Part shown: piece after piece, positions 48,200 through 57,165 of the stretch
Layout: every line of letters starts with the position of its first letter
How positions within the stretch are numbered: the stretch's first letter is position 1
DNA from: Streptomyces bacillaris
GTDB taxonomy: Bacteria > Actinomycetota > Actinomycetes > Streptomycetales > Streptomycetaceae
DNA: 64,000 nt
Assembly (NCBI RefSeq): GCF_003268675.1
Contig: NZ_CP029378.1
Coordinates: forward strand, 5,952,001 to 6,016,000
Direction of reading: 5' to 3'
Translations under genes and position numbers: made by a program
The notes under the pieces: generated by a model
Seen by the model: only the letters and a program-made list of their open reading frames with translations
Database searches by the model: none
What the model was told of the DNA's origin: nothing

Positions 48200-48318
48200 G
48201 GGGCCAAGGTTACGCGAGGAAGCCCCGAAAACGCCTCTGGCCAGGGGCGATTGTCAGTGGTGGGCAGTAAAATGGAGGGAGTTCGTGAGGGTTCCACCAC
48301 CCTGCCAGGAGGATGCCG

Positions 48319-48624
48319 ATGGCCGTTGCCGCAGCCACCACCGAGCCGCTCGACCGACAGCTCCCGATGCCCTTCCGCCCGCCCCTGCCCACCCCGCCGG
48401 CGAAGAAGCGCCTGCCCGCGGGCCGCCCCCGCGAGTGGTACGTCTCGCACAATCGCCGCCTGAAGGCCATGCGCCTGGCGATCGCCCTGCTCGACAGCGG
48501 GGTCTACCAGCCGGCCAGCGCGGGCAACCACAAGATACGGACCACCGCCGAGCGCCTGGGCATGCACCCGCCGTCCGACACCACCTGCCGCATGGTCCGC
48601 GCCCTGATCCGCTACGGCCGCTGA
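48319..48624 (+). CDS. Conserved small protein of streptomycetes, function unknown
   Basis: Encodes 101 residues from ATG 48,319, six bases after AGGAGG; an in-frame ATG at 48,313 lies inside that site. Pro-rich N terminus (EPLDRQLPMPFRPPLPTPPA) followed by a basic helical domain: PREWYVSHNRRLKAMRLAIA, LLDSGVYQPASAGNHKIRTT, AERLGMHPPSDTTCRMVRAL. The latter half has HTH-like spacing but no recognised family. No membrane segment. Divergent from the ArsC-like gene by 119 bp. Confidence 0.7.
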   Translation: MAVAAATTEPLDRQLPMPFRPPLPTPPAKKRLPAGRPREWYVSHNRRLKAMRLAIALLDSGVYQPASAGNHKIRTTAERLGMHPPSDTTCRMVRALIRYGR

Positions 48625-48986: not shown

Positions 48987-49322
48987 ATGGGCCACACGGT
49001 CGCCGGCTGGACGGGCACCGCGACGGCGGTCGTGGGTTGCACGGTCCTGGGGGTGGCCGTGGCGGCGGTCTCCCTCCCCATCGCCCTCGCCGGCACCGGC
49101 CTCACCCTCGGCGCGGCGCTGCTGACCTGGCTCCTCCACCTGGCGGGCTGGGGCAAGCCGAGCGGCCCGCGCCCGGAGAGCGAGTGGTCCTGGAAGGTAC
49201 GGGACCGCTCGGCCCGCCGGGGCCACCCCGGCTGCCTGGGCTGCCGCATGGCGGGTCGGAGGGGGCACGCCCCCGAAAAGGCATCGAACGCCGTACCGGT
49301 TGCCTCTACTGTGACCGGATGA
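48987..49322 (+). CDS. HGxxPAAW-type small membrane protein
   Basis: Encodes 111 residues from ATG 48,987 (MGHTVAGWTGTATAVVGCTV). The GHTVAGWTG start corresponds to the HGxxPAAW motif found at the N terminus of a family of about 100-residue actinobacterial membrane proteins. Two transmembrane helices follow (VVGCTVLGVAVAAVSLPIAL, LTLGAALLTWLLHLAGWGKP), then a cytoplasmic tail with HPGCLGCRMAGRR. Function unknown. The start lies directly at the apparent deletion junction with the MarR remnant, so a few N-terminal residues and the native promoter may have been lost; no good ribosome site is seen. Confidence 0.65.
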   Translation: MGHTVAGWTGTATAVVGCTVLGVAVAAVSLPIALAGTGLTLGAALLTWLLHLAGWGKPSGPRPESEWSWKVRDRSARRGHPGCLGCRMAGRRGHAPEKASNAVPVASTVTG

Positions 49323-49389
49323 CGATCGAGGCGATCACGTACAGGGGCGCCCCCGCCACCACCCGTCGCCCCCAGCCGGGGGGAGCGCG

Positions 49390-49956
49390 ATGAGCGACCT
49401 GTGGACCGGCGAGAAGGTACGCCTGCGCGGCATCGAACCCGACGACTGGGAGGGCTTCCGGGCCCTGGCCCTGCACACCGTCGACGCCCGCAACGCCGAC
49501 GTGGTCGAGCCCCCGCGCTCCGACGAGAGCTTCCGCGCCTGGACCGCCGAACGCGCCGGCCGCCCCCCGAACCCGGCCACGTACCGCCTGGTCATCGAGA
49601 CCCGCTTCGAGCACGCCTTCGTCGGCGCGGTGACGGTCGGCGAGACGGACGCCCGCGCCGGCCGTTTCCGTACGGGCATCGAGGTCACCCGCGAACACCG
49701 CCGCCAGGGCTACGCGTCCGAGGCCACCGAACTGGTCCTCACCTACATGTTCGCCGAACAGCGCAGCCACAAGTGCGAGGTGGAGGTCTACGCCTTCAAC
49801 GACGCCTCCCTGGCCCTCTACCGCTCCCTCGGCTTCGTGGAGGAAGGCCGCCTGCGCCAGCACGAGTTCTTCGCGGGCACCTACCACGACGTGGTCCTGC
49901 TGGGCATCACGGCGGACGAGTACTGGGCGGGGCGCGCGCGGCCCTCGCTGCGCTGA
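49390..49956 (+). CDS. GNAT-family N-acetyltransferase (RimJ-like)
   Basis: Encodes 188 residues from ATG 49,390 with GGGAG about 5 bp upstream. GNAT fold: VRLRGIEPDDWEGFRALAL, then IEVTREHRRQGYASEATELV, which contains the acetyl-CoA pyrophosphate-binding R-R-x-G-Y/A motif, and VYAFNDASLALYRSLGFVEE, the conserved motif B (N..S..Y..LGF). The layout is that of RimJ/RimL-type acetyltransferases modifying N termini or small amines. The substrate cannot be assigned. Single gene, 67 bp after the membrane protein. Confidence 0.88.
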   Translation: MSDLWTGEKVRLRGIEPDDWEGFRALALHTVDARNADVVEPPRSDESFRAWTAERAGRPPNPATYRLVIETRFEHAFVGAVTVGETDARAGRFRTGIEVTREHRRQGYASEATELVLTYMFAEQRSHKCEVEVYAFNDASLALYRSLGFVEEGRLRQHEFFAGTYHDVVLLGITADEYWAGRARPSLR

Positions 49957-50080
49957 GGCCGAGTCGGCTTCCGGTCGCCCAAGGTCTGGAACCAGCCGAA
50001 ACGCACAGGGGCGACGGACGTGGGACGCGCCTGTCCCCGACGATGCTCTCAGTGGACCGGCGGACGGCTCGGGAGGCTCC

Positions 50081-50224
50081 ATGGGCAAGCAGGTCACGTG
50101 CGGATCGCTGAAGACGAAGACCGGCAAGCCGTGCCGGAATCCGGCGATGATCGGCTACTCCCGGTGCCAGTTGCACCGGGGCGAGTGGACGCCCCCGCAG
50201 AAGAGGAAGACCAAGAAGCGGTAG
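50081..50224 (+). CDS. 47-residue Cys/His zinc-knuckle-like protein
   Basis: ATG 50,081 follows GGGAGG by 4-5 bp and opens 47 codons: MGKQVTCGSLKTKTGKPCRN, then PAMIGYSRCQLHRGEW and a basic tail (KRKTKKR). The C-x10-C-x9-C-x2-H pattern resembles the small CGAxTRxGxPC..C..H zinc-binding proteins common in phages and mobile elements and next to their homing or packaging genes. It is close to a frameshifted regulator gene and to the 49-bp repeat that opens the accessory locus at 50.9 kb. Function unknown; too short to be sure it is expressed. Confidence 0.6.
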   Translation: MGKQVTCGSLKTKTGKPCRNPAMIGYSRCQLHRGEWTPPQKRKTKKR

Positions 50225-50292
50225 CCGCACCCGGGCGCAGCACCGGGAGCGCGACGGGCACGCCGACCCGGCCGACTCGGGACGAGGGAGAC

Positions 50293-50914
50293 GTGGACGC
50301 AGTGACCAGTTCCGTGCCATGGCAGGAGCGCCTGTCCGCAGGCGCCGAAGCCGTCCAGGACGAAGTGATCCGCTGGTACCAGCAGACGTCCGAAGGCCTG
50401 GCGTATGTGCCGGACATGGTCTGGGGGGACGCTCCAGACGGACGCGTACGCCACCGTGATCCTGGGGCGGGTCGTCGACTTCCTGGGGGTCCCGGACGAC
50501 GTGCCCGCCGGGGTGGCCAAGCGGATGGAGCGGCAGCGGGTGCTGTACGACGGTGAGCACCGTTACGACGTCGTCCTCGGGGAACAGGCCCTGTACACGA
50601 ACGTCGGCGGGGCCGAGGTCATGGCCGAGCAGATCGACCGGATCCTCCGTGACCTCGACCTGCCCTCACTCGACCTCGGCATCATCCCCGCCTCGGCGCC
50701 GGTGGGCATGTGCCCCGTCCACGCCTTCAGCCGGCACGGCGACGAGGTCCACGTAGAGCTGGTCTCCTCGGGGGTGAAGGTGACCGAGCCCGCCGAACTC
50801 GCTCTCTACCGGAAGGCGTTCGGTCGGCTCGGCGATGCGGCCCTCCGCGGCGAGGGCGCCCGGAAGCTCCTGCACAAGGCCCGGGACTTCTGGGCTGAAG
50901 GCGGGCGGGGCTGA
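50293..50914 (+). pseudogene. DUF5753 protein, frameshifted and lacking the HTH
   Basis: GTG 50,293 has GAGGGA upstream and begins VDAVTSSVPWQERLSAGAEA, VQDEVIRWYQQTSEGLAYVP-DMVWG. At a run of six G (50,423-50,428) the frame must shift by one to continue GTLQTDAYATVILGRVVDFL, RVLYDGEHRYDVVLGEQALY, IIPASAPVGMCPVHAFSRHG to a stop at 50,914. This is the DUF5753 domain that normally follows a XRE-type HTH in Streptomyces (LQTxxYA and the Y..V..E.aL motifs); the HTH is absent. Either a genuine mutation or an assembly error in the G-run; even if corrected, it would be a domain without its DNA-binding half. Confidence 0.72.
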
Positions 50915-50930
50915 CCGCACGGCGTTCGCG

Positions 50931-50979
50931 GGCACGGCCGAGGGCCGCCACCTCCGGGAGGAAGGGGCGGCCCTCGGTG
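50931..50979. repeat. 49-bp direct repeat, left copy (terminator-like)
   Basis: Identical to 55,547-55,595 over the first 32 bp (GGCACGGCCGAGGGCCGCCA...) and the last 13 bp, with a 4-base differing stretch between (AGGG against GATG). It forms a hairpin CGAGGGCCGCC...GGCGGCCCTCG. The right copy is the glnA terminator, so this looks like a duplicate of it at the other edge of a 4.6-kb locus. Confidence 0.8.
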
Positions 50980-51003
50980 CCCGGGGTCAGGGAGACGAAG
51001 GTG

Positions 51004-51023
51004 TCACCAGTGCCGGCTGGTGA
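51004..51023 (-). terminator. Small hairpin downstream of the excisionase-like gene
   Basis: TCACCAG-n6-CTGGTGA, a 7-bp stem with a 6-nt loop, lies 76 bp past the stop of the minus-strand operon. Confidence 0.45.
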
Positions 51024-51098
51024 AGGTGGCTTGCCAGTCACTGAGCGAACCACCCTGACGGGAAGACCAGGTGCAGGGTGAGCGAGTGGCCCGAAGCG

Positions 51099-51347
51099 TC
51101 AGGCACCGTGGTCCAGCGTGTAAACGGCGCGCTCATCCACACCGATGGCGCGCATCAGCTCGATGGTGGGCACCCTGTACCGGTTGCCGATCCGCAGGAT
51201 CTTGCAAGGAAAATCACCTCTGCGGGCCAGTCGGTACGCGGTGGTCGGGCAGATGCCCAGAGCCCGAGCGGCGGTCGGCACGTCCACGGTGACCGGAAGG
51301 TCGAATGCTTCCACGAAGCTCAGCGGGACGTGCCTGCCCGCGCTCAT
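51099..51347 (-). CDS. Small excisionase-like helix-turn-helix protein
   Basis: Encodes 82 residues from ATG 51,347, overlapping the upstream gene's stop by ATGA. The core VPTAARALGICPTTAYRLAR-RGDFPCKILRIGNRYRVPT is an HTH_17/excisionase-type winged HTH, with the basic turn and the RIGNRYRV wing. From memory, proteins with this LPVTVDVPTAARALG start are found beside integrases and in integrated elements of actinomycetes. No integrase is seen here. Likely a DNA-binding recombination-directionality factor or small regulator. Confidence 0.75.
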   Translation of the reverse strand: MSAGRHVPLSFVEAFDLPVTVDVPTAARALGICPTTAYRLARRGDFPCKILRIGNRYRVPTIELMRAIGVDERAVYTLDHGA

Positions 51348-52093
51348 CGGTGCCCCGCCCCGCGGCTGCGGGGACCGTCGGCGGCCTGCCGCCTGCGACC
51401 CGTGTCGCGCCGCCGGCAGCCGGCCCCCCTCCCTTCGGCTGACTCCGTGAGCGCGGCCAAGGCCCGTCGGCCCACGCTCTCGGGAGACACGGTGAAGCGC
51501 AAGTGGGCCCGGAGCCCGCCAACCTGCTCGTGCCGGGTGACTTCGACCTGTCGCGGCCGGACCCGTTCGGTGATCTGTGGCCCGTCGCACGGTACGCCGC
51601 GGCTGTCGGAGAGACGCTCCAGCGTGTCGTCGGCGAATTCACGAGCTCCGGACCGGGCGAGGCGCCACGCCCGGCTGCATACCGCCTTCAGCAGACCGTC
51701 CACCGAGTCGGCCGGCGGCTGCTCGCAGCCCTGCAGGCCTTCCAGCAGGGCCAGAACCATCTCCGCCTCCAGATCGGCCCGATCGGCGCGCAATCGGCGG
51801 CTGATGCGGGCGGCGGTGCCGTTCAGCCTGGGCAGAGCCAGCCAGACCAGCAGCAGCCGCCCCATCCCGGCGGGCCCGTGTTCCGCCGCCGCGGCCCGCA
51901 CGACCGCCTGCCAGATCGGGGTGACGAGGGTGGGGTCGCGATCCGGGCCGTAGAGGGCCTCCCGTGCTTGGCCAGGTGTCAGCACAAGGGGCGTCGTACT
52001 GTCCGTGACGACGGTCAGCCGGATCGCCTCCGTCGTCCCGGGGTCGTCGAAACGCCGTGATACGGCAGCGAACACGCTGCTGGTGTTGGCCAT
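51344..52093 (-). CDS. Conserved actinobacterial protein of unknown function, helical
   Basis: Encodes 249 residues from ATG 52,093 (MANTSSVFAAVSRRFDDPGT). N-terminal part: TEAIRLTVVTDSTTPLVLTP, GQAREALYGPDRDPTLVTPI. Middle: GRLLLVWLALPRLNGTAARI, SRRLRADRADLEAEMVLALL, EGLQ..., AVCSRAWRLARSG, an alpha-helical block whose DLEAEMVLALLEGL reminds me of sigma-factor region 2 (D-x-E-x-E-x-x-L-x-L-L-E), although no region 4 follows. The C-terminal third is basic and low complexity. From memory, relatives occur on integrated elements next to small HTH genes, as here. No signal or membrane segment. Function not known. Confidence 0.65.
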   Translation of the reverse strand: MANTSSVFAAVSRRFDDPGTTEAIRLTVVTDSTTPLVLTPGQAREALYGPDRDPTLVTPIWQAVVRAAAAEHGPAGMGRLLLVWLALPRLNGTAARISRRLRADRADLEAEMVLALLEGLQGCEQPPADSVDGLLKAVCSRAWRLARSGAREFADDTLERLSDSRGVPCDGPQITERVRPRQVEVTRHEQVGGLRAHLRFTVSPESVGRRALAALTESAEGRGAGCRRRDTGRRRQAADGPRSRGAGHR

Positions 52094-52283
52094 GGTCAAG
52101 GCACAGTCCTCTCTTGCTGTCCGCCTGACGGCAGAAATGTCGTTGAGTGGTAACGCGTGCCACGCAGGGGTATCCCGTTGCGGCCTGTGAACTCGGCGGG
52201 CCGCAGCGGTAGGAAGGGCGAAGGGTCCTCCCGGGGGTGCCCCTCCTATGGAGGGGCACCTGATACGGACCGCGCCGCTGATC

Positions 52284-52445
52284 TCAGACCTCGGACGGCG
52301 ACGGGTTGTCCGGGGTGGTGTCGGACGGGGTTGCCGATGTCGACGGCAGTTCCTTCCCGCGGGTCCGACGCTTGATGCCCGTCGGGAAGCCGCCGGAAGC
52401 CCGCTTGGCACGTCCTCCCCGGCGCCCGGGCAGACGGTTGCTCAT
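52284..52445 (-). CDS. 53-residue basic small protein, divergent from the AfsR-like activator
   Basis: ATG 52,445 is preceded by AAGGA 8 bp upstream. The 53 residues split in two: a strongly basic N-terminal half (MSNRLPGRRGGRAKRASGGF, PTGIKRRTRGKELP) and a Ser/Thr/Pro/Asp C-terminal half (STSATPSDTTPDNPSPSEV). No cysteine and no obvious leader-protease site, so it is not a clear RiPP precursor. First gene downstream of the shared promoter region and on the same strand as the 249- and 82-residue genes. It may be a nucleic-acid-binding peptide; function unknown. Confidence 0.55.
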   Translation of the reverse strand: MSNRLPGRRGGRAKRASGGFPTGIKRRTRGKELPSTSATPSDTTPDNPSPSEV

Positions 52446-52552
52446 GCTCTTGTCCTTCCTCGTTCTGGCAGTTCTCCGGTTCATCACCGCCCTGTTCGGC
52501 GAGCGACTGACGCCATGGTGCCCAGCGGGGCGGCACCCGGACGGGAGCGGAA

Positions 52553-52581
52553 CTGAGGAATCTCTGAGTCGGATCTGAGGG
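52553..52581. promoter_or_regulatory. SARP-type direct repeats (three CTGAG units, 11-bp period)
   Basis: CTGAGGA at 52,553, CTGAGTC at 52,564 and CTGAGGG at 52,575 are spaced exactly 11 bp, so they lie on one DNA face. Heptamer direct repeats with 4-bp spacers are the known binding pattern of SARP/AfsR-family activators. They lie in the 244-bp divergent region between the small gene (52,445) and the AfsR-like gene (52,690), the expected place for autoregulation or activation of the small operon. Confidence 0.6.
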
Positions 52582-52689
52582 GGCGTGAAGTAGTGCGTTG
52601 GTGTAAAGCGATGTCCGGATACGCACAGATCTCTGTGGTGTCGGCGCAGTGGCCCCAGGAGGTCACCGTGAAAGCGGAGGGGAGCGGAC

Positions 52690-55446
52690 GTGGAGGGACG
52701 GGTGCTCGGGGTCGTCACCGTCGGGCCGACGGGTTCGAGCGATGGCCCGACGGTTACGGGAACCAAGAAGTCGGCCGCCCTGTTCGCCCTGCTGGTCACC
52801 TCGGAGGGGGGCCGCTGCCCTGTGTCTGAGGTGTTCGACTGTCTCTGGCCTGGATCGCCGTTTGTGCGCAACCGCCTCGACCGAGTGATGTCGGACTTGC
52901 GGAGTGCCCTGCGGAACAAGGAATTCCTGACCACGGACTCGGGAGTCTGTTCCCTTCGCCTGCCGAGGGAACAGATCGACCTCTACCGCTTTCGGGATTC
53001 GCTGCGAAGCGCGGAAACGCTGTCGGGGAAAGAGAAGTTCGAGGCCATCTCCGCCGCGCTGACGCAGTGGCCACGCGGTCTGGTGCCGTTGAGTGGCCTG
53101 GAGGACCCGTGGGCGGCAGTCCGCCGAGAGGAGCTGCATCGGGAGCGGATGGAGGCGCTGCAGGCTCAGTTCGAAGTCGCGCTGCGGGCCGGCCTGGACG
53201 AGTGGCTGCATGTCGAGTCGAAGCGCCTGTACCACGACCTCCCGGAGGAATCCTGGCTGTTCCGGTTCTACCTCATGCAACATGGAGGCACGCTGTCGCC
53301 GTCGAAACTGGAGAGAGCGATCAGGCGATGGACCAAGCGGTTCCTGCAGCCGGACGACAAGCTGCAAGCCGTCATCGACCGACTGCACGGGAAGGCGCCC
53401 AGCGCGCGTATCCCTACCCTGGCGCACGTGCCCGATCAGCTGCCTCCCCTTGGGCGCCCTGCGCTGGGCCGGGAAGCGGAACTCCATCAGGTGGTGGAGA
53501 CGGTGCGCCGACGGCAGAAGTCAGGCCGTCCCACCGTGGTGGTGATCAGCGGACTGCCCGGAATCGGGAAGAGCCTGCTGGCGAACCACGCCGCGCACGC
53601 GCTACGGCAGATCTTTCCGGACGGGGTGCTCTTCGCGGAACTCGGAGGCTTCGCGGAGCCGGGGGTGAGGCCCGCTGACCCGGAGAGCGTCATCGATGGA
53701 TTTCTGGCGGAGTTCCCGGTTCCCACGAAACCCGTCGGCCTGGCACAGAAGGTCACGGCGCTACGGTCGGTGCTGGCGAACAGGGCTGTGCTCATCGTGC
53801 TCGATGACGCATGGGACGACCAGCAGGTACTGCCACTGCTGCCCGGTACGGGTGCCGGCGCGGTGCTGATCACCAGCCGGCGCCGCTTGGAGACGCTTCG
53901 AGCCGATCCCCAGGTGGAGGAAGTGCTCCTGGGGGAGCTGGACGACGAGGCCTCCACCGCGCTGTTGGAGGAGCGCATGCCCCAGGCCCACCGCGGCAAG
54001 ACCTCGCGAGAGGTCAAGGCCATCGTGGAGCTGTGCCGAGGCCATCCCTTGGCCCTCTCGGTGACCGCCCGAAGGCTCGACGGCCACGCCTTCGCGGCGA
54101 TCCATCATCTGCACCAGAAGCTCAAAGTGGAGGAGGAGCGGCTCGATGCCCTGGACCACCGGCCGTCCCAACTGTCCGTCAAGGCCGCGCTGGCCTGCTC
54201 GGTGGACACCCTGTCCGAGCAGGCGCGTTGCCTGCTCTGGCAGCTCGCAGTGCATCCAGGACCCTCGATCAGCTGGTCGGCGGTGTTGGACCTAGGCCTG
54301 GCGGGCGAGGAGTTGCATACCGACCGGGCGATCGAGGAACTTCTGACGGCGAATCTGGTGGAGCTGCGGTCGGATCGCTATCGCCTGCATGATCTGGTGC
54401 GGACGTTCGCCCGTCAGCGGGTGCTTCCCGAGGCTTTCCGTGCGAACGCCGACTTCGAGGCGGCGACTGTCCGGCAGGTTCTGGAACACCAGCTCCAGAA
54501 GGTCTGGGCCTGCGACCAGTGGCTCGACGGTCAGCGGTCGTTGCCCGTCGGCGAACCGGAGGGCATCACGGTGGACCGGCCCGAGGGGCTGGAAGCTGCT
54601 CTGACCATGCTCGATGACTCGTACGACGAGGTCGTCCGGGGCATTGAGCTGTCGCTCGGACACGGCAGCCGACGCCATACGTGGCTGCTGCCGATGGCAC
54701 TGGTCACCTACCTGTGGCGCCGCCGCCGTTTGAGGGATGCTCAGCGGTTCCTCACCCTGGCCGGGGAAGCCGCGGAGCAGTGCGGGGCGCCACCGGTGGA
54801 GCAGGCCATGACACACCGGATGCTCGCGGGGACCTACTGGCACCAGGGCCGGTTCGACCTGGCGGCCAATCAGCTGGTCCGGGCGGTGCGGCTGAGTGAG
54901 CAGGACAGCAGTGCCCGAGGCAGGCTGAGCCTCGCGAGGTCACGGCACACCCTGGCGATCACTCGGCGTAAGCAGGGGCGTGAAGCGGAGGCGGAGCAGG
55001 ACCACCGGTCGGCGCTGGGCGTGTACCGGGAGCTGTCCGATGCAGCGGGGGCGGCCGCGGCGCTGAACGGCTTGGGGACGATCCACCACGATCGAGGTGA
55101 GGACGACGAGGCCCTCGCCGCCTGCACCGAGGCGCTCGACCTGGTCCGCGGGACGACGGACCGCAGAGGCTTGGCCGATGTGCTGCGCACCCTGGCCGAG
55201 ATCCGTTTTGCCATGGGGGACAGGGAGCCGGCGCTCGAGCTGTTCGGACGGGCAGTTCTGATCTACCGCGAGCTGGGCTCGTGGATCGAAGAGGACCGGG
55301 CGCTGGACCTTCAGGCCGATGCTCTGGTGATGGCCGGCCGGAAGGCCGATGCGGTGGCTGCCCTGGAACGAGTGATGGCCTTGCGCGAGCTGATGGGCGG
55401 CATGGATCTCGCCGAGGTGCGTGACCGGCTGGAATCGCTGCGGTGA
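52690..55446 (+). CDS. AfsR-like SARP activator: winged helix, BTAD, NB-ARC, TPR
   Basis: Encodes 918 residues from GTG 52,690, with GGAG 8 bp upstream. Residues 20-95 are an OmpR-like winged helix (TKKSAALFALLVTSEGGRCP, VRNRLDRVMSDLRSALR); 100-235 is a BTAD helical domain. The NB-ARC ATPase begins LGREAELHQVVETVRRRQKS, with P-loop VISGLPGIGKSLLANHAA (about 285-300), Walker B AVLIVLDDAWDDQQVL, sensor GAVLITSRRRLETL, GHPLALSVTARRL. C-terminal TPR repeats (about 720-910) include NGLGTIHHDRGEDDEALAAC. AfsR-type proteins hydrolyse ATP and bind direct repeats to recruit RNA polymerase. No antibiotic cluster is adjacent; likely targets are its own promoter and the divergent genes. The whole locus lies between 49-bp repeats. 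Confidence 0.87.
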   Translation: MEGRVLGVVTVGPTGSSDGPTVTGTKKSAALFALLVTSEGGRCPVSEVFDCLWPGSPFVRNRLDRVMSDLRSALRNKEFLTTDSGVCSLRLPREQIDLYRFRDSLRSAETLSGKEKFEAISAALTQWPRGLVPLSGLEDPWAAVRREELHRERMEALQAQFEVALRAGLDEWLHVESKRLYHDLPEESWLFRFYLMQHGGTLSPSKLERAIRRWTKRFLQPDDKLQAVIDRLHGKAPSARIPTLAHVPDQLPPLGRPALGREAELHQVVETVRRRQKSGRPTVVVISGLPGIGKSLLANHAAHALRQIFPDGVLFAELGGFAEPGVRPADPESVIDGFLAEFPVPTKPVGLAQKVTALRSVLANRAVLIVLDDAWDDQQVLPLLPGTGAGAVLITSRRRLETLRADPQVEEVLLGELDDEASTALLEERMPQAHRGKTSREVKAIVELCRGHPLALSVTARRLDGHAFAAIHHLHQKLKVEEERLDALDHRPSQLSVKAALACSVDTLSEQARCLLWQLAVHPGPSISWSAVLDLGLAGEELHTDRAIEELLTANLVELRSDRYRLHDLVRTFARQRVLPEAFRANADFEAATVRQVLEHQLQKVWACDQWLDGQRSLPVGEPEGITVDRPEGLEAALTMLDDSYDEVVRGIELSLGHGSRRHTWLLPMALVTYLWRRRRLRDAQRFLTLAGEAAEQCGAPPVEQAMTHRMLAGTYWHQGRFDLAANQLVRAVRLSEQDSSARGRLSLARSRHTLAITRRKQGREAEAEQDHRSALGVYRELSDAAGAAAALNGLGTIHHDRGEDDEALAACTEALDLVRGTTDRRGLADVLRTLAEIRFAMGDREPALELFGRAVLIYRELGSWIEEDRALDLQADALVMAGRKADAVAALERVMALRELMGGMDLAEVRDRLESLR

Positions 55447-55546
55447 CGGCCGTCGTACCACGTCCGTGGACAGGCGGTTCCCTCCTCGGAAACTCGCGTG
55501 GCCGGGCCGGGAGACCGCTTCGAGTCGCTGCTGCGCACCGACCCCC

Positions 55547-55595
55547 GGCACGGCCGAGGGCCGCCACCTCCGGGAGGAGATGGCGGCCCTCGGTG
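55547..55595. repeat. 49-bp direct repeat, right copy; glnA terminator
   Basis: The hairpin CGAGGGCCGCCA (55,555-55,566) with TGGCGGCCCTCG (55,581-55,592) is a 12-bp stem located 24 bp past the glnA stop on the minus strand, and so is its terminator. The same 49 bp, with four or fewer mismatches in the loop, recurs at 50,931-50,979. Confidence 0.82.
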
Positions 55596-55618: not shown

Positions 55619-57028
55619 TCAGAGGTCGAAGTACAGCTCGAACTCGTGCGGGTGCGGGCGCAGCTGGATCGGGGCGATCTCGTTCGTGCGCTTGTAGTCG
55701 ATCCACGTCTCGATCAGGTCCGACGTGAAGACGCCGCCCGCCTGGAGGTACTCGTTGTCCGCCTCCAGGGCGTCGAGCACGGCCGGGAGGGAGGTCGGGA
55801 CCTGCTGGACGTTGGCGTGCTCCTCGGGAGCCAGCTCGTAGAGGTCCTTGTCGATCGGCTCGGCCGGCTCGATCTTGTTCTTCACGCCGTCCAGGCCCGC
55901 CATCAGCAGCGCGGAGAACGCGAGGTACGGGTTGGAGGACGGGTCCGGGGCGCGGAACTCGACGCGCTTGGCCTTCGGGTTCGAGCCGGTGATCGGGATG
56001 CGCATCGCGGCGGAACGGTTCCGCTGCGAGTACACCAGGTTGACCGGGGCCTCGAAGCCGGGGACCAGGCGGTGGTACGAGTTCACCGTCGGGTTGGTGA
56101 AGGCCAGCAGCGACGGGGCGTGCTTCAGGATGCCGCCGATGTAGTAGCGCGCGGTGTCCGAGAGACCGGCGTAGCCCTGCTCGTCGTAGAAGAGCGGCGA
56201 GCCGCCCTGCCACAGCGACTGGTGGACGTGCATGCCCGAGCCGTTGTCACCGAAGATCGGCTTCGGCATGAAGGTCGCGGTCTTGCCGTTGCGCCAGGCG
56301 ACGTTCTTCACGATGTACTTGAAGAGCATCAGGTCGTCGGCCGCGGCGAGCAGCGTGTTGAACTTGTAGTTGATCTCGGCCTGGCCGGCGGTGCCGACCT
56401 CGTGGTGCTGGCGCTCGACCTGGAGGCCGTTCTTGTCCAGCTCCAGGGAGATCTCGGCGCGCAGGTCGGCGAAGTGGTCGACCGGCGGGGCCGGGAAGTA
56501 GCCGCCCTTGTAGCGGACCTTGTAACCCCGGTTGTTCTCGACCGCACCGGTGTTCCAGGCGCCGGCCTCGGAGTCGATGTGGTAGAAGCTCTCGTTCGCC
56601 GACGTCTGGAAGCGGACGTTGTCGAAGACGTAGAACTCGGCCTCCGGGCCGAAGTACGCGGTGTCCGCGATGCCGGTCGAGGCCAGGTACGCCTCGGCCT
56701 TCTTGGCGATGTTGCGCGGGTCACGGCTGTACTGCTCGCCCGTGATCGGGTCGTGGATGAAGAAGTTGATGTTGATCGTCTTGTCGCGGCGGAACGGGTC
56801 CACCCGAGCCGTCGACAGGTCCGCGCGCAGCGCCATGTCCGACTCGTGGATGGCCTGGAAACCGCGGATCGACGAACCGTCGAAGGCCAGCTCCTCGGCC
56901 GGGTCGAACGTCGCCGCCGGGATCGTGAAGTGCTGCATCACCCCGGGCAGGTCGCAGAACCGGACATCGATGAACTTGACGTCGTTGTCCGCTACGTACT
57001 TCTGCACTTCGTCGGCGTTCCGGAACAT
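55619..57028 (-). CDS. glnA: Glutamine synthetase I (GlnA)
   Basis: Encodes 469 residues from ATG 57,028 ([20 protein letters not shown]), with AGGAGG upstream; a longer in-frame start at 57,139 would enter the GlnR region and is rejected. Signatures: [94 protein letters not shown]. The adenylylation tyrosine is in [13 protein letters not shown] (about residue 397), the target of GlnE encoded at the left edge of the window. Dodecameric; main ammonium-assimilating enzyme. Regulated by a GlnR box upstream and terminated by the hairpin at 55,547-55,595. Confidence 0.98.
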
Positions 57029-57126
57029 CCAACTCCTCCTACTCCCGGCCCAGGAGGGACGGGGTTGTAGCTCGTTGAGCGGCCAGTGCGGGTGGCACAC
57101 GCTGGACCCGACCATAGGCAGACGTG

Positions 57127-57165
57127 GTTTCTCAAGCATGACCCATTTGTTTCGCTCAAGTTAAC
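57127..57165 (-). promoter_or_regulatory. glnA: GlnR binding site upstream of glnA
   Basis: On the plus strand it reads GTTTC-n6-ATGAC-n6-GTTTC-n6-GTTAA, i.e. on the glnA strand two tandem gTnAc-n6-GaAAc units with exact 6-bp spacers. It is 99 bp before the start codon and matches the known GlnR box of streptomycete glnA closely. Confidence 0.9.

What the first reader, a model, noticed from the sequence alone, without database searches (positions are those of the whole stretch)
50931..55595. 4.6-kb locus bracketed by 49-bp direct copies of the glnA terminator
The terminator of glnA is duplicated at the far side of a block holding an excisionase-like HTH gene, a 249-residue helical protein, a 53-residue peptide and an AfsR-like activator. 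A duplicated 3'-end sequence around foreign-looking genes is what site-specific integration leaves (attL/attR). No integrase is present, so it could be a remnant or a passenger mobilised in trans. A terminator as integration site would be unusual, since tRNA genes are typical.
Basis: partly seen in the sequence, partly recalled or inferred. Interest (0 to 1): 0.7.

Follow-up and report, generated by a model that had tools for sequence, protein, structure and literature searches.

The report
Leftover control genes of defence island
A 4.6-kb block of foreign genes beside a Streptomyces glutamine-synthetase gene is most likely the control end of a larger Argonaute-like (PIWI-RE) defence island whose cutting enzymes have been lost; it is probably not a phage-like element that inserted itself at a terminator.

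Summary
The repeat is real: 50931-50979 and 55547-55595 match at 46 of 49 bases, each is a strong hairpin, and six relatives have one such hairpin beside glnA and not this block (G080 is an almost exact empty site). The block is foreign. The att reading is not supported. Streptomyces sp. PTY087I2 carries the same four genes (83% DNA identity) in the same place, as the start of a pPIWI-RE island: HTH, 249-aa protein, 53-aa protein, SARP/NB-ARC regulator, then kinase, PD-(D/E)XK, REase, DinG helicase, PIWI-RE. Of 20 genus loci examined, 9 have the SARP, and all 9 have PIWI-RE at 13.0-13.6 kb; in a second collection 16 of 16 evaluable SARP loci carry the next four genes in order. The window lacks all five effectors. 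So this is most likely an orphaned regulatory half. The SARP keeps a conserved operator (CTGAG three times at 11-nt period). The 249-aa protein resembles sigma-factor region 2 by fold and profile (both weak alone) and was paired with the HTH protein at every locus examined, some beside TIR, Crp-type or STAND genes. That pair as a split sigma factor for defence islands is the boldest reading. How the hairpin was doubled remains open.

The parts
50931..50979 (.). left copy of the 49-bp terminator-type hairpin (counterpart of the hairpin beside glnA in empty-site relatives, next to the DUF5753 gene)
51099..51347 (-). 82-aa HTH_17 DNA-binding protein, partner of the 249-aa protein (ATGA overlap)
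   Evidence: HTH_17 E 1.3e-10; next to the 249-aa gene in 20 of 20 and 27 of 27 loci examined, partly the same genomes
51344..52093 (-). 249-aa helical protein (h249), sigma-region-2-like by fold and profile
   Evidence: no Pfam or NCBIfam family
52284..52445 (-). 53-aa basic protein, conserved in PTY087I2 (77%)
   Evidence: dN/dS 0.39 against PTY; not found by tblastn in the other loci
52553..52579 (+). SARP-type operator: CTGAG three times at exact 11-nt period, beginning 137 nt before the SARP start
52690..55446 (+). 918-aa large SARP: weak SARP-type DNA-binding end, NB-ARC, TPR
   Evidence: NB-ARC 6.3e-13, TPR_12 1.2e-29, Trans_reg_C 0.014 below cut-off; AfsR-like below cut-off
55447..55474 (.). 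last 28 nt that BLAST aligns to PTY087I2; in PTY these are the last codons of the convergent kinase gene (read by eye); inferred deletion edge
   Evidence: weak similarity further right is not excluded
55475..55546 (.). 72 nt of unknown origin between the inferred deletion edge and the right hairpin
   Evidence: six hits in other genomes that I looked at were pieces of unrelated genes
55547..55595 (.). right copy of the hairpin, between SARP and glnA
55619..57139 (-). glnA; stop TGA here, TAG in 8 of 8 clade members compared

Best explanation
The block is the surviving regulatory end of a pPIWI-RE defence island that had settled in a variable interval between a conserved gene at 48313-48624 and glnA. 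The complete island in relatives runs HTH - h249 - (53 aa, in PTY) <- -> SARP/NB-ARC/TPR - kinase - PD-(D/E)XK nuclease - REase - DinG helicase - PIWI-RE; in PTY and G173 it ends about 100 nt before glnA. In the window everything from the tail of the kinase gene to the end of the PIWI gene is gone (about 9.9 kb measured on PTY). Shown: gene identity, order in relatives, absence here, empty sites. Inferred: that the loss was a deletion after arrival; that the STAND-type SARP senses an infection signal, binds its own CTGAG operator and switches on the island; that h249 and the HTH protein form a second transcription control. In this genome the regulators probably now control little but themselves. 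The doubled hairpin is most simply the resident glnA terminator on the left and, on the right, the hairpin that came with the island or its glnA-side flank, by homologous or homology-assisted recombination at glnA; this step is the least certain.
For: PTY087I2 cassette 83% identical over window 51108-55474, in the same neighbourhood (arsC, 103-aa gene, GNAT), followed by kinase, PDDEXK, RE, DinG, PIWI and glnA. G173: PprPIWI E 0, PprDinG 2.4e-262, PprPDDEXK 1.2e-170, PprRE 4.3e-78. Of 20 genus loci examined 9 have SARP, and all 9 have PIWI-RE 13.0-13.6 kb from h249; in genome contigs 16 of 16 evaluable SARP loci have kinase-PDDEXK-RE-DinG in order, the 17th runs off its contig (the two sets share genomes). 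A second remnant cut differently: G157/L199 keeps HTH, h249 and a PIWI C-terminus. G080 empty site. The interval is variable: 82 nt to 16.3 kb from the 103-aa gene to glnA in the 31 of 45 genomes where both were found in the stretch held. In PTY the left side keeps the resident hairpin and spacer up to the glnA stop while the glnA-side hairpin is another type, as expected if the right end came from a donor.
Against: No fragment of the PIWI gene is recognisable in 55475-55546, so deletion is inferred from relatives, not from debris. The four genes are open and conserved (dN/dS against PTY 0.10, 0.44, 0.39, 0.24), though that divergence mostly predates the loss. The two hairpins are more alike (94% over 49) than either is to most relatives (79-92%; the right copy is 97% like G139 over 39 nt), which also fits a duplication at insertion. 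The window and PTY left junctions differ, so they may be separate insertions. SARP was looked for at 20 genus loci and 27 contigs only, so SARP-only copies elsewhere are not excluded.
Confidence: 0.75

Rival explanations
1. A small integrative element mobilised in trans: a recombinase supplied elsewhere inserted a 4.6-kb passenger at the glnA terminator, leaving attL and attR; the HTH protein is its excisionase.
For: 46 of 49 direct repeat; single-hairpin sites without the block in six relatives; at the three differing positions the left copy matches G005 at two and the right copy at one, the pattern of a crossover inside the repeat (read by eye); weak TIGR01764 resemblance; one integrase-like match about 1 kb from the HTH gene in L088.
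Against: The same genes are the start of a 14.5-kb island elsewhere; no repeat pair at 6 of 6 other-site islands or in G209 and G373; no match to six own-genome integrases in 56 of 57 stretches searched, some of them overlapping; spacer and glnA tip differ from empty sites.
Confidence: 0.1
2. The four genes travel and work as an independent regulatory cassette, acquired without the effectors, perhaps acting in trans on the second PIWI-RE locus of this genome at 1.41 Mb.
For: All four ORFs are intact; the SARP operator is intact; the genome has another PIWI-RE locus without h249 or HTH.
Against: No other SARP-bearing copy without effectors was found (0 of 9 genus loci, 0 of 16 evaluable contigs); the exact triple operator occurs only at this SARP gene in the genome; the other PIWI-RE locus is of a distant branch (PIWI 34% identical to G173's).
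Confidence: 0.15
3. The two hairpins are unrelated terminators of a common Streptomyces type that merely look alike.
For: Hairpins with this kind of stem stand beside glnA in several relatives, and the right-junction query scores in 196 of 392 genomes at E<=0.001, counting short chance pieces; G173 has two that are only 79% alike.
Against: 46 of 49 identity including bases outside the stem, while the next best site in the genome is 85%.
Confidence: 0.1

Closest known systems
pPIWI-RE (PADLOC Ppr) systems: REase - DinG helicase - PIWI-RE (Burroughs et al. 2013, PMC3702460)
   Same: the full-length relatives carry the same REase-DinG-PIWI order; a kinase and PD-(D/E)XK nuclease also stand at the distant second locus of this genome (L269)
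   Different: here preceded in addition by a STAND-type SARP, h249 and an HTH protein; the window keeps only those regulators. The 2013 section on gene context describes a standalone gene or a three-gene operon (section 8 read)
Large SARP regulators (AfsR, RslR3, PolY type)
   Same: SARP-NB-ARC-TPR order of about 1,000 aa; three repeats at 11-nt period upstream, the classical SARP site (PMC10972967 passages)
   Different: sits in a defence island and by inference controls its own gene; AfsR equivalog score 204.6 against a cut-off of 1430
[quoted passage not shown]
   Same: a region-2-like protein and a separate DNA-binding HTH protein encoded together
   Different: the HTH partner is of HTH_17 type and was not compared with sigma region 4; no RNA polymerase binding shown. 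A sigma-like HTH domain in BrxL of BREX is read as plain DNA binding (PMC12839542 passages), so likeness to sigma need not mean transcription

Membership tests
pPIWI-RE defence system | PIWI-RE, DinG and REase genes at the locus | tested here: not met
   absent from the 64-kb window; present in PTY, G173, G209, G373. The window locus is a remnant, not a member
pPIWI-RE defence system | the same flanking regulators as full islands | tested here: met
   HTH, h249 and SARP in the same order and orientation
Integrated mobile element with attL/attR | direct repeat at both ends, one copy in empty site | tested here: met
Integrated mobile element with attL/attR | integrase gene in the element or its relatives | tested here: not met
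   none in the window; 1 of 57 relative stretches with an integrase-like match, BLAST with six own-genome integrases only
Integrated mobile element with attL/attR | same repeat brackets other copies of the element | tested here: not met
   0 of 6 other-site islands; none in G209, G373; PTY left only; G173 79% gapped pair
Excisionase (TIGR01764) | score above family cut-off | tested here: not met
   16.4 bits, cut-off 28.8
Large SARP | SARP DNA-binding domain, NB-ARC, TPR | tested here: inconclusive
   NB-ARC and TPR above cut-off; Trans_reg_C E 0.014 below cut-off; SARP-type operator supports it
Sigma factor | sigma region 2 fold | tested here: inconclusive
   VIA Z up to 6.4 with sigma factors or polymerase holoenzymes in nearly all 50 rows shown; Foldseek E 0.8 or worse; HHalign E 0.0032, score 25.0 against 16.3 best of 60 permuted controls, probability only 9.85%
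Sigma factor | binds RNA polymerase and directs initiation | not testable with these tools
   needs biochemistry

The most novel reading that the evidence does not exclude
h249 and its translationally coupled HTH partner are a two-subunit (split) sigma factor dedicated to defence islands of actinobacteria: a portable transcription switch that has been joined to unrelated effectors (PIWI-RE with a STAND-type SARP in one class; TIR, Crp-type and STAND genes in another), and that here survives after its effectors are gone.
Probability: 0.25. Interest if true: 0.75.

Novelty: new variant of a known kind. Interest (0 to 1): 0.5.

Why it matters
It replaces a story about a terminator as an integration site by a concrete one: a nine-gene PIWI-RE island with two layers of transcription control, which is also lost in pieces. 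The pPIWI-RE paper that I could find for Streptomyces in the held library describes a lone gene or a three-gene operon, so the conserved regulators (STAND-type SARP with its operator, h249 with HTH) are testable leads on how such systems are kept silent and switched on. If the h249/HTH pair is a split sigma factor shared by different defence systems, defence islands would have their own dedicated transcription machinery.

Tried and rejected
Excisionase/att reading: rejected as above. Left post-repeat flank as leftover glnA spacer: looked plausible by eye, but scores no better than shuffles (z -1.3, -0.3, 1.6, 0.4 against G005, G080, G371, G150), so I dropped it; the PTY left flank does match (z 3.6, 5.9, 4.3, 2.7). 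Homology past 55474: 100 nt after SARP against PTY score above all but 1 of 500 shuffles, mostly through the first 28 nt; left open. Mosaic glnA from a distant donor: sliding identity shows the window gene inside its clade (about 97% to the nearest); only the last codons and stop differ. TGA with the same tip also occurs in G023 and G004 of the wider genus, which I did not follow. Origin of 55475-55546: the six hits I looked at were pieces of unrelated genes. A pure defence hotspot: intervals of 18 relatives hold mixed genes as judged from ORF translations, not from family searches. Promoter motif upstream of h249: no clear shared motif. Plasmids and phages: no h249 match; DNA of the block finds only short SARP pieces in 4 plasmid records. 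Viral fold library: nothing with E<=0.001. Literature searches; 'pPIWI-RE' with 'Streptomyces' gives one paper, PMC3702460. Papers seen: PMC3702460 section 8 and passages; PMC10991935 outline and abstract; PMC7641849 (its 'PIWI-RE' hits shown were 'Piwi-related'), PMC7159879, PMC12839542, PMC8103513 and PMC10972967 passages only.
Full report
What was checked. The 49-bp direct repeat exists at the stated places, 46 of 49 identical. Both copies fold as strong hairpins on both strands. The own genome (G000, 7.89 Mb, one contig) holds no other close copy; the next is 85% alike, and the exact stem occurs four times in all. No tRNA gene lies within 40000-64000.

Empty sites. In six genomes of the nearest clade one hairpin stands next to glnA and the block is not there. 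G080 (L172) matches the window from 49272 to 50980 (84.6%), has one hairpin, and continues straight into glnA (94.2%). G005 has one hairpin between a DUF5753 remnant and glnA. G371, G150, G139 and G151 also have one; G150 has about 2.7 kb of other DNA between GNAT and the hairpin. G311 and G202, also in this clade, show no close copy of the hairpin, and G090 and G227 had no glnA in the stretch fetched. Among the six only G080 has any h249 match, a weak one on another contig (E 9.9e-6). So the block is an insertion.

What the block is. h249 has matches in 37 of 392 genomes of the genus. I examined 20 loci from 19 of these genomes: the HTH gene stands next to h249 in 20 of 20, and 9 of the 20 also have the SARP. 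The genes beyond SARP in G173 are a protein kinase, a PD-(D/E)XK nuclease, and the pPIWI-RE REase, DinG and PIWI-RE proteins (Pfam and PADLOC). PF13032 (PIWI-RE RNase H) is found in 111 of 392 genomes, so most PIWI-RE genomes lack this arrangement; the nine h249+SARP loci (G361, G126, G142, G173, G124, G072, G232, G373, G209) all have it 13.0-13.6 kb from h249. Across a second collection (27 loci; some are the same genomes) HTH stands next to h249 in 27 of 27 and 17 have SARP: 16 carry kinase, PDDEXK, RE, DinG in the same order, the 17th (L200) ends inside SARP at its contig end; the PIWI gene lies beyond the 9-kb flank fetched there. The other 10 have no SARP; one of them, L199 (G157), keeps HTH, h249 and a PIWI C-terminus, i.e. 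another remnant.

The closest relative, Streptomyces sp. PTY087I2 (L189, L221), has the four genes at 83% DNA identity over 51108-55474 and in the same chromosomal neighbourhood, with the whole PIWI-RE island and then glnA. BLAST homology stops 28 nt after the SARP stop; in PTY those bases are the last codons of the convergent kinase gene (my reading of the sequence). A looser alignment of the next bases is not clearly better than chance once these 28 are set aside, but was not tested on its own. In the window none of the five effector genes is found in 64 kb (tblastn with the G173 proteins, E 1e-10). The window genome has another PIWI-RE locus at 1.41 Mb, of a distant branch, without h249 or HTH.

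The place. G173, G209 and G373 also carry full islands between the 103-aa gene and glnA, in the same orientation as in the window; 2.0 and 4.6 kb of other DNA separate PIWI from glnA in G209 and G373. Other islands sit elsewhere. The distance from the 103-aa gene to glnA varies from 82 nt to 16.3 kb in the 31 of 45 genomes where both were found in the stretch held. It is a variable interval with mixed contents.

The doubled hairpin. It is not a general property of the island: 0 of 6 islands at other sites have a flanking pair, G209 and G373 have none, PTY has the left one and another type at glnA, G173 has a pair that is 79% alike with gaps. In PTY the left flank keeps the resident hairpin and the spacer up to the glnA stop (z 2.7 to 5.9), so that island went in at the end of glnA. 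In the window neither outer flank matches empty sites beyond the hairpin, and the glnA tip reads TGA where 8 of 8 clade members read TAG. Against my view, the mismatches between the two copies fall as a crossover inside the repeat would leave them (by eye). I favour recombination with a donor tract on the glnA side, but cannot exclude duplication during insertion; this step is inferred.

How it would work. The 918-aa protein has NB-ARC and TPR parts and resembles AfsR below the equivalog cut-off. CTGAG-N6-[CT]TGAG lies 126-142 nt before the SARP start in 9 of 11 SARP loci (window, PTY, L081-L083, L085-L088; not L089; L090 has a degenerate form), against 0.15 expected per 64 kb. The window has three in a row, the only exact triple in the genome; allowing one mismatch adds one site, and the backward control gives two. 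Three heptamers with 4-nt spacers are a described SARP site (PMC10972967 passages). Hence self-activation of the SARP gene is likely. h249 has no family. Its AlphaFold model (mean pLDDT 73.8, core near 90) matches sigma factors over about residues 1-151 in nearly all of the 50 rows shown (best Z 6.4; I take the F/E/G chains of polymerase entries as sigma subunits), though Foldseek alone is weak and the tool warns that such Z values are common for helical models. A profile comparison with 30 sigma region-2 segments of the own genome aligns residues 87-151 in the expected register (E 0.0032, score 25.0; best of 60 column-permuted controls 16.3; reversed 12.3; probability 9.85%). I rate the region-2 likeness as probable and a working split sigma factor as possible. 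The pair also stands beside TIR-like, Crp-type and STAND genes, so it is not tied to PIWI-RE.

Verdict. A real, foreign insertion and a remnant, but of a PIWI-RE defence island rather than of an integrase-borne element.

Noticed in passing
window 50405-50914: DUF5753 gene without its HTH part, beside the left hairpin; the reading frame upstream seems broken (by eye), and G005 has lost most of the gene.
   Followed up: partly
G000:C1:1404000-1423500 (L269): A second, distant pPIWI-RE locus in the same genome with kinase, PDDEXK, RE, DinG and PIWI, and a SARP-like gene nearby, but no h249/HTH.
   Followed up: partly
L092, L097 (and similar ORFs in L093, L094, L098): h249/HTH pair beside TIR-like effector, 263-282-aa proteins that look cyclase-like by eye, a Crp-type regulator and a 1487-aa STAND protein: a possible cyclic-nucleotide defence type.
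   Followed up: partly
L199 / L084 (G157): HTH and h249 directly followed by a PIWI-RE C-terminal fragment: a second, differently cut remnant of the island.
   Followed up: partly
L088 11126-11530: Integrase-like match about 1 kb from the HTH gene in G232, the only one in 57 stretches searched.
   Followed up: no
L270 (G265): PIWI-RE gene and an h249/HTH pair about 9.5 kb apart without the SARP layout, next to a 1419-aa protein.
   Followed up: no
window 48313-48624 to glnA: The interval from this 103-aa gene to glnA ranges from 82 nt to 16.3 kb among relatives, a variable spot with no tRNA gene in the window stretch.
   Followed up: partly
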